From positions 1-64,000 of the forward strand of contig JACCXH010000007.1 in the NCBI GenBank assembly GCA_013697245.1: DNA of 64,000 nt, in the 5' to 3' direction. The translations under genes were made by a program, and so were the position numbers. Source of the stretch: Bacteroidota bacterium. Its GTDB lineage: Bacteria; Bacteroidota; Bacteroidia; B-17B0; Aurantibacillaceae. Shown here piece by piece: positions 44,814 to 45,701 of this stretch (its first letter is position 1; the number at the start of each line of letters is the position of its first letter). The notes under the pieces were generated by a model. That model was not told where the DNA came from. It did no database searches and saw only the letters and a program-made list of their open reading frames with translations.

Positions 44814-44861
44814 CATATGTCATATTGCCGTGAACTAAATGTGTTATCCTGCTGGAACTAA

Positions 44862-45246
44862 ATACGTCACCCTTGAGCGGAGTCGAAGGGTGTATCAATA
44901 ATTCAGATGGAAGAACTAAGTGTGTATATTCTAAGTTGTTCAGATAACTCTTATTATGTAGGAGTAACTAATAATGTTTCTATCAGATTTGAGCAACATA
45001 ATGAAGGGTTAGATCCTTCTTGTTACAGGTATAAAAGAAGACCCATTGAGTTATTATGGCGTAATAAATTTCAATCGACACTTGAAGCTATAAAGTGGGA
45101 AAAGAAAATTAAAGGATGGACAAGAAAGAAAAAGGAAGCATTAATAGAAGGGAAATTTGAAGTTTTAGCTCAATTAGCCGAATGTAAAAATGAAACGCAT
45201 TTTAAAAATAAAGTAAAAGGCTTCGACTCCACTCAGCCTGACGTAT
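44862..45246 (+). mobile_element. GIY-YIG gene bounded by inverted REP-like hairpins (candidate compact mobile unit)
   Basis: The outer ends are a perfect 8-bp inverted pair, ATACGTCA (44862-44869) and TGACGTAT (45239-45246). Next to each lies a hairpin whose loop is conserved in inverted orientation: GAGCGGAGTCG in the left copy (7-bp arms CACCCTT/AAGGGTG, 44868-44892), and TCGACTCCACTC in the right copy (5-bp arms AGGCT/AGCCT, 45218-45239). The arm sequences differ but pairing is kept. Only the GIY-YIG gene lies between. Two 23-bp steps sharing GAACTAAAT precede it (44821-44866), perhaps older decayed copies. Mobility is inference; no target duplication is evident. Confidence 0.5.
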
Positions 45247-45248
45247 AA
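44907..45248 (+). CDS. Stand-alone GIY-YIG nuclease family protein
   Basis: A 113-residue protein consisting only of the GIY-YIG domain. The first Tyr is in VYILSCSDNS and the second motif is YYVGVTNNV. The catalytic Arg is in VSIRFEQHNEG (about residue 27), and the metal-binding Glu in AIKWEKKIKGW (about residue 68). All key positions appear intact. The last nine residues (GFDSTQPDV) are encoded by the downstream palindrome itself, and the TAA lies in the terminal inverted repeat. Characterised GIY-YIG enzymes cut DNA; the target of this family is unknown. It is probably an accessory gene. Confidence 0.92.
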   Translation: MEELSVYILSCSDNSYYVGVTNNVSIRFEQHNEGLDPSCYRYKRRPIELLWRNKFQSTLEAIKWEKKIKGWTRKKKEALIEGKFEVLAQLAECKNETHFKNKVKGFDSTQPDV

Positions 45249-45254
45249 AAAAAC

Positions 45255-45443
45255 GTTCGTGCCTAAAACCGCGTAAGCAAACATTGTGAATCGGCCTCAA
45301 AGAAATTCCGTAAGATTTTTTGGTTACAAACACACCGTCTCGCTCAATGCTTCGCATTGCCGTCATCAAGGAAAAAGTGACGATAAGAAATTTATTAAAA
45401 AAATAAAAGGTCCGCGCCTAAAACCATTCATTCGCGGACCTTT
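45255..45443 (-). repeat. Duplicated terminator-like sequence and small hairpins
   Basis: A hairpin with perfect 11-bp arms (45406-45416 and 45433-45443, 16-nt loop) is followed on the minus strand by a T-rich tract, so it could terminate the decayed gene at 45531-45701. Part of it, 45410-45425, recurs at 45255-45270 with 14 of 16 identical bases. Between them is a small 6-bp hairpin (45345-45359, CAATGC/GCATTG). No open frame of note lies in 45249-45530, so this long non-coding stretch seems made of repeats. Confidence 0.55.
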
Positions 45444-45524: not shown

Positions 45525-45530
45525 GTTAAG

Positions 45531-45701
45531 TTAATCTAAAACAACCTTCTTCACTTGTGCATGCTTACCTTGTTCTATTCTCACAAAATAAACTCCTTTT
45601 GGGTTTTTGCTGATATCAATTTCTTTATCGTAAGCGCCTATAAAGTTTGTTAACTTTTCGCTGTACACTTTTTTGCCTTCAATATTTAAAGTTTTTAAAT
45701 C
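45531..45701 (-). pseudogene. Remnant of a T9SS type A cargo gene (C-terminal sorting domain only)
   Basis: On the minus strand, 56 codons read through to a TAA and encode LNIEGKKVYSEKL, then IDISKNPKGVYFVRI and QVKKVVLD, the classic end of a type A sorting domain (GKxVxxxxL ... L/IxxGVYxVRI ... KKVVL). An in-frame TGA at 45702-45704 precedes it, and there is no start codon or upstream domain. The rest of the secreted protein is gone or moved away. The reading is clearly coding in character, so decay rather than chance is likely. Confidence 0.75.

What the first reader, a model, noticed from the sequence alone, without database searches (positions are those of the whole stretch)
44862..45246. 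GIY-YIG nuclease gene framed by inverted REP-like hairpins with compensatory stem changes
Seen: an 8-bp perfect inverted repeat ends the unit; each side has a hairpin with an almost identical loop (GAGCGGAGTCG / TCGACTCCACTC) in inverted orientation, but different stem bases that still pair. The last codons of the nuclease (GFDSTQPDV) lie in the right hairpin. This recalls REP/RAYT partnerships, where a small nuclease is bound to and spreads its own palindromes, but here the enzyme is a GIY-YIG protein rather than a Y1 transposase. The CTTCGACTCC-type hairpin is, from memory, frequent in Bacteroidota genomes. Inference: the protein recognises the hairpin and the unit is a minimal mobile or domesticated element.
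Basis: partly seen in the sequence, partly recalled or inferred. Interest (0 to 1): 0.72.

Follow-up and report, generated by a model that had tools for sequence, protein, structure and literature searches.

The report
Nuclease gene paired with own hairpin repeats
A small DNA-cutting enzyme gene sits between two inverted DNA hairpins, and across many bacteria close relatives of the enzyme are flanked by their own matching version of such hairpins, which points to the long-missing enzyme partner of a widespread class of bacterial repeats.

Summary
Window 44862-45246 is one unit: ATACGTCA, hairpin, GIY-YIG nuclease gene (113 aa), inverted hairpin, TGACGTAT. The hairpin loop occurs exactly twice in the 4.44-Mb genome, at these two places. 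The pattern is general. In 90 homologues from genomes of the window's order, the two flanks match each other as inverted repeats far better than they match the flanks of a paralogue in the same genome (p = 2e-21). Two deep protein clades carry two different hairpin superclasses (112:0 versus 1:26), also where both clades share a genome. In alpha-proteobacteria and Neisseria the flanking hairpins are textbook CGTC-tagged REPs (dRS3 in Neisseria), published in 2013 as lacking a dedicated enzyme. Catalytic residues are conserved, dN/dS is 0.01-0.16, and units are present in some relatives and absent at the same site in others. Best reading: a REP/RAYT-like partnership in which a structure-specific GIY-YIG nuclease replaces the Y1 transposase. 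Recognition, cut site and transfer reaction are inferred, not shown. The window's own hairpins share the CGTC tag and head-to-head layout, but not the published stem and loop lengths. No paper in the open-access library joins the two; other literature was not searchable.

The parts
44862..45246 (+). Whole unit: CGTC-tagged hairpin, GIY-YIG gene, inverted CGTC-tagged hairpin
   Evidence: Homology to the unit in sister genome G012 (C10:119331-119730, a different genomic place) covers window 44856-45247, that is, it ends at the hairpins
44862..44869 (+). Left terminal inverted repeat ATACGTCA; CGTC tag at 44865-44868
   Evidence: CGTC tag as in Di Nocera 2013
44868..44892 (+). Left hairpin, CACCCTT / GAGCGGAGTCG / AAGGGTG
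   Evidence: (z -2.73); loop unique to the unit in the genome
44907..45248 (+). GIY-YIG nuclease, 113 aa (UPF0213 type); Y7, Y17, R27, E65 conserved
   Evidence: Pfam PF01541 E=2.4e-17; PDB 1zg2 by sequence, UPF0213 then Slx1 by fold; conservation
45218..45239 (-). Right hairpin (inverted), AGGCT / loop / AGCCT, overlapping the 3' end of the ORF
   Evidence: alignment with the left hairpin
45239..45246 (-). Right terminal inverted repeat TGACGTAT; CGTC tag (as GACG) at 45240-45243

Best explanation
The unit is a minimal selfish or recently selfish element made of a structure-specific GIY-YIG nuclease and the two CGTC-tagged hairpins that the nuclease recognises: a REPtron-like arrangement in which the nuclease takes the place of the RAYT transposase. 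Shown: inverted tagged hairpins flank the gene; the hairpin flavour changes with the protein lineage and not with the genome; the enzyme is conserved in its catalytic residues and under purifying selection; units and hairpin-only copies are gained or lost at individual sites. Inferred: the enzyme binds its own hairpin when it is extruded or single-stranded (for example on the lagging strand), cuts at the tag or in the loop, and host repair and recombination then copy the unit, or gene-less hairpin pairs, into other sites. GIY-YIG chemistry is hydrolytic (established knowledge), so joining must be left to host enzymes. The window copy looks like a single resident unit, intact but with no gene-less relatives of its flavour in the genome.
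For: Loop flavour unique to the unit. In 82 homologous loci, 41 have an exact inverted match of 12 nt or more between the two flanks, versus 3 of 296 shifted control windows and 46 of 400 mismatched locus pairs. Unbiased flank score: own median 15.7, paralogue in the same genome 9.8 (MWU p=2e-21; own higher than the best cross score in 58 of 71 loci). Tree of 175 proteins: superclass needs 2 changes; ten classes 43 changes versus 108.6 shuffled (0 of 200); clade by superclass 112:0 versus 1:26. CGTC REPs head-to-head around the gene in Rhizobium, Sinorhizobium, Shinella, Neorhizobium, Novosphingobium, Sphingobium and Aeromonas, and as whole dimers on both sides in Azospirillum; dRS3 arrays around it in Neisseria. 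Insertion polymorphism. Catalytic residues, dN/dS 0.01-0.16. UPF0213 controls from Bacillota and Fusobacteriota have no such hairpins. After UPF0213 the nearest solved fold is Slx1, a branched-DNA nuclease. Hairpin copies are more numerous in genomes with a close homologue (median 28 versus 7, p=6e-4).
Against: No biochemical evidence and no observed movement; no target-site duplication could be read. About a quarter of the 90 loci have flanks at background score, and 39 of 178 have no recognised hairpin class. Two genomes (G024, G026) hold about 50 hairpins with no enzyme found. At least eight copies in one genome were spread inside an unrelated MITE. GIY-YIG nucleases are not known to transpose DNA by themselves. 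The class patterns for one search were written after looking at the flanks, so one search is the cleaner test.
Confidence: 0.64

Rival explanations
1. The nuclease is a housekeeping or domesticated enzyme that resolves or trims the cruciforms formed by the repeats, and co-evolves with them without spreading them.
For: Nearest folds are UPF0213 and Slx1, a repair nuclease for branched DNA; strong purifying selection; single-copy state in this genome.
Against: The hairpins lie directly around the gene in inverted orientation, and the unit comes and goes between relatives. Up to 8 homologues per genome, several with stops, look like mobile-element turnover. UPF0213 genes in a fixed housekeeping place have no hairpins.
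Confidence: 0.17
2. A free-standing homing nuclease whose target is an existing repeat: it cuts hairpin loci and is copied into them by recombination, so the repeats are its landing site and not its ends.
For: The gene lies within repeat arrays in G023, G019 and Neisseria and between two whole hairpin dimers in Azospirillum. Hairpins nested in the loops of other hairpins, always in one orientation (11 versus 0 shuffled), and many half-hairpins broken just after TGAGC, suggest breaks in the loop.
Against: In the window and in G012 the unit ends at the hairpins with no further hairpin of the kind next to it; Azospirillum relatives without the unit have no such repeat at the site.
Confidence: 0.15
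3. The hairpins spread by another route (a MITE, RAYT, replication slippage) and the GIY-YIG gene is cargo that landed in repeat-rich intergenic places.
For: MITE-borne hairpin dimers in G019; hairpin-rich genomes without a detected homologue, G024 and G026.
Against: Cargo would meet whatever hairpins its genome holds; instead paralogues in one genome tend to have their own flavour, and in the window's genome this flavour exists only beside the gene.
Confidence: 0.09
4. The hairpins are transcription terminators or regulatory hairpins of the gene, with no link to mobility.
For: One hairpin lies at the end of the ORF; a few remote homologues do have terminator-like hairpins (L225, L231).
Against: No T-run follows, hairpins of the family occur by the dozen elsewhere in related genomes, the upstream copy is inverted, and the loop flavour follows the protein lineage.
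Confidence: 0.02

Closest known systems
CGTC-tagged REPs (Di Nocera et al. 2013, PMC3733652), including Neisseria dRS3
   Same: Terminal CGTC (or TGTC) tag outside a hairpin, head-to-head pairs, dispersed in intergenic DNA. Relatives of this nuclease in alpha-proteobacteria, Aeromonas and Neisseria are flanked by typical members.
   Different: The window's hairpins have 5-6-bp stems after the tag and 11-12-nt loops, versus 8-9-bp stems and 4-5-nt loops, and no CCA tail. The 2013 paper found no dedicated enzyme for the class.
REP/RAYT (TnpA-REP) partnership, REPtrons and REPINs
   Same: Small enzyme gene flanked by inverted tagged hairpins; each enzyme lineage has its own hairpin flavour; gene-less hairpin pairs elsewhere in the genome.
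   Different: The enzyme is a GIY-YIG hydrolytic nuclease, with no Y1 transposase domain; the tag is CGTC, not GTAG.
UPF0213 / YazA-type GIY-YIG proteins
   Same: Same family by sequence and fold (1zg2, 1ywl).
   Different: The Bacillota yazA genes examined sit in the fixed yabA-trmN-yazA-rsmI neighbourhood and have no flanking hairpins.
Slx1 structure-specific nuclease
   Same: GIY-YIG fold; next-best structural match after UPF0213.
   Different: Slx1 is a eukaryotic repair enzyme working with Slx4; it is not tied to repeats of its own.
GIY-YIG homing endonucleases and Penelope-like elements
   Same: GIY-YIG nucleases serving selfish DNA.
   Different: No intron, no separate DNA-binding domain, no reverse transcriptase; hairpin ends are the hallmark here.

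Membership tests
GIY-YIG nuclease superfamily (PF01541) | Profile match and conserved Tyr, Tyr, Arg, Glu | tested here: met
   E=2.4e-17; Y7, Y17, R27 and E65 at 97-100% in both clades
CGTC-tagged REP (window hairpins) | CGTC or TGTC tag at the outer end | tested here: met
   CGTC at 44865-44868 and inverted at 45240-45243
CGTC-tagged REP (window hairpins) | Head-to-head pair, tag outside | tested here: met
CGTC-tagged REP (window hairpins) | Stem 8-9 bp starting AT, loop 4-5 nt, CCA tail | tested here: not met
   5-6-bp stem after the tag, starting AC or AG, loop 11-12 nt, no CCA. So a CGTC-like relative, not a member by the published definition
CGTC-tagged REP (hairpins at clade-B homologues) | Tag, 8-9-bp stem from AT, short loop, CCA tail | tested here: met
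   L165 CGTC-ATCCTCGGG-CTTGA-CCCGAGGAT-CCA; L166 CGTC-ATCCCCGC-GAAG-GCGGGGAT-CCA
RAYT / TnpA-REP | HUH motif and catalytic Tyr of a Y1 transposase | tested here: not met
   The only Pfam match is GIY-YIG
RAYT / TnpA-REP | Enzyme flanked by its own inverted REPs, flavour co-diverging with the enzyme | tested here: met
RAYT / TnpA-REP | Enzyme binds and cleaves its cognate REP | not testable with these tools
   needs purified protein
Homing endonuclease | Element copied into a cognate empty allele | tested here: inconclusive
   Sites without the unit exist but are too diverged to read the junction

The most novel reading that the evidence does not exclude
Stand-alone GIY-YIG nucleases are the dedicated mobility enzymes of the CGTC-tagged REP superfamily across bacterial phyla (Bacteroidota, Chlorobi, alpha-proteobacteria, Neisseria and others): a second REP/enzyme system that arose independently of REP/RAYT and moves hairpins by hydrolytic cutting plus host repair.
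Probability: 0.5. Interest if true: 0.92.

Novelty: new variant of a known kind. Interest (0 to 1): 0.82.

Why it matters
CGTC-tagged REPs are widespread short repeats in bacteria (dRS3 in Neisseria, RPE-4 and RPE-6 in Rickettsia, many alpha-proteobacterial families), and the 2013 survey left open which enzyme made them. This finding names a concrete candidate, with cognate enzyme/hairpin pairs that can be tested at the bench. If right, it shows that the REP/enzyme arrangement arose twice with unrelated chemistry, and it gives a role to many small 'GIY-YIG nuclease family proteins' that are sometimes annotated as excinuclease ABC subunit C.

Tried and rejected
A tag-first hairpin detector (GTC + stem of 6 bp or more) was too strict for the short Bacteroidota stems and near background there, though it worked in alpha-proteobacteria. 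Dispersed dimers of identical spacing in G019 looked like REPIN spread but are carried by a MITE with other terminal repeats, so they are not counted as evidence. Precise target-site duplications were not readable, because the relatives are too diverged (near searches). Defence-system and phage-family libraries gave nothing for the window protein. Two alignment calls failed on stop-containing loci. Literature: GIY-YIG together with REP, palindromic repeats or elements, dRS3 or RAYT, and CGTC with RAYT and REP, gave no paper linking this nuclease to REPs (the 2006 superfamily survey PMC1564403 does not mention palindromes or inverted repeats); the library holds open-access papers only.

Full report
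Observation. Window 44862-45246 is a compact unit: ATACGTCA, a hairpin with loop GAGCGGAGTCG, a 113-aa GIY-YIG nuclease gene (44907-45248; Pfam E=2.4e-17), the same hairpin inverted with other stem bases, and TGACGTAT. In the whole 4.44-Mb genome the loop pattern occurs only at these two places. The left hairpin folds better than shuffles and the right one does not, so the argument below rests on comparison.

Generality. Eighty homologues fetched from genome contigs are mostly flanked by hairpins of the form stem-GAG-N-TCGA-stem'. The nearest one is on the + strand upstream (51 versus 10) and on the - strand downstream (44 versus 22), against a background of 0.1 per kb. Without assuming any motif, 41 of 82 loci have an exact inverted match of 12 nt or more between the two flanks, versus 3 of 296 shifted windows and 46 of 400 mismatched pairs of loci.

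Cognate pairing. In 65 genomes of the window's order, homologues are common, often several per genome and some with stops. For 90 of them the inverted match between a gene's own flanks (median score 15.7) far exceeds the match to the flanks of a paralogue in the same genome (9.8; p=2e-21; 58 wins, 13 losses). This controls for each genome's repeat content. On a tree of 175 proteins, hairpin classes change 43 times versus 108.6 in shuffles (0 of 200), and the two superclasses change twice. By clade the count is 112:0 versus 1:26, the exception being L228, a long-branch remote homologue. In the 14 genomes that hold both clades, every gene with a recognised class has the class of its own clade. 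The class patterns were written after inspection; the score was not fitted to any motif. The tree has few columns (98), so only the deep split and the shuffle comparison should be leaned on.

CGTC REPs. In alpha-proteobacteria and Aeromonas the homologous genes are flanked by inverted hairpins such as CGTC-ATCCTCGGG-CTTGA-CCCGAGGAT-CCA and CGTC-ATCCCCGC-GAAG-GCGGGGAT-CCA; in Azospirillum a whole head-to-head dimer lies on each side. In Neisseria the gene lies within dRS3 arrays. These fit the published definition of CGTC-tagged REPs, for which Di Nocera et al. found no dedicated transposase (PMC3733652). A few loci of this set (L090, L168, L171) showed no such pair. The window's own hairpins share the tag and layout but have shorter stems and longer loops, so they are filed as relatives, not members.

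Mobility. The unit is missing at the matching intergenic place in sister species (G003, G031). The same unit lies elsewhere in G012, with homology ending at the hairpins. Beside the conserved gene at that G012 site, G023 and G032 have no hairpin, G009 has hairpins without the gene, and G012 has the gene. Azospirillum lipoferum has the unit between sufB and sufC, and three relatives at about 94% identity do not. Shinella hits suggest a similar presence/absence at lower identity. No duplication of the target could be read.

Enzyme state. The two Tyr, the Arg and the Glu of the GIY-YIG site are at 97-100% in both clades, and dN/dS is 0.01-0.16. The predicted fold (mean pLDDT 79) is closest to UPF0213 proteins and then to Slx1, a branched-DNA nuclease. 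UPF0213 controls from Bacillota and Fusobacteriota, including yazA in its fixed operon, have no hairpins.

Mechanism. I infer that the enzyme recognises the tagged hairpin as a structure, cuts it, and leaves joining to host repair. Two hints favour breaks in the loop: hairpins nested in the loops of others, always in one orientation (11 versus 0 in shuffles), and 66 of 261 left halves broken right after TGAGC. Against simplicity: MITE-borne dimers in G019, and hairpin-rich genomes without a detected enzyme. Hairpin numbers are only moderately higher where a close homologue is present (median 28 versus 7).

Novelty. No paper in the open-access library joins GIY-YIG nucleases and REPs; subscription journals and preprints were not searchable. 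I rate it a new variant of a known kind (REP/enzyme partnership), with a fair chance that it is a second, independent kind.

Noticed in passing
L250-L257 (genome G019): At least eight copies of a roughly 125-bp MITE with ATACCATTTATAA-type ends carry a hairpin dimer inside, so an unrelated element also spreads the hairpins.
   Followed up: partly
L004 and ten other cases in fetched loci: Hairpins nested inside the loop of another hairpin, always in the same orientation; 11 distinct versus 0 in shuffles.
   Followed up: partly
window 45270-45392: Two other dispersed repeat families (about 45270-45319 and 45314-45392) with copies at roughly 80-94% identity across the genus.
   Followed up: no
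window 45528-45690: Conserved fragment (87% identity) that continues further in G003 and G031; in the window it looks cut short.
   Followed up: no
L004 (G000:C56:59616-59879): Second GIY-YIG gene of the same genome, 53% identical, with a different hairpin flavour (GAGCYTGTCGA).
   Followed up: yes
G024 and G026: About 50 hairpin copies each but no homologue found: enzyme lost, or hairpins moved by another enzyme.
   Followed up: no
L260 (G019:C78) and L261 (G023:C34): Tandem arrays of hairpin pairs with near-constant linkers; in G019 the GIY-YIG gene sits inside the array.
   Followed up: partly
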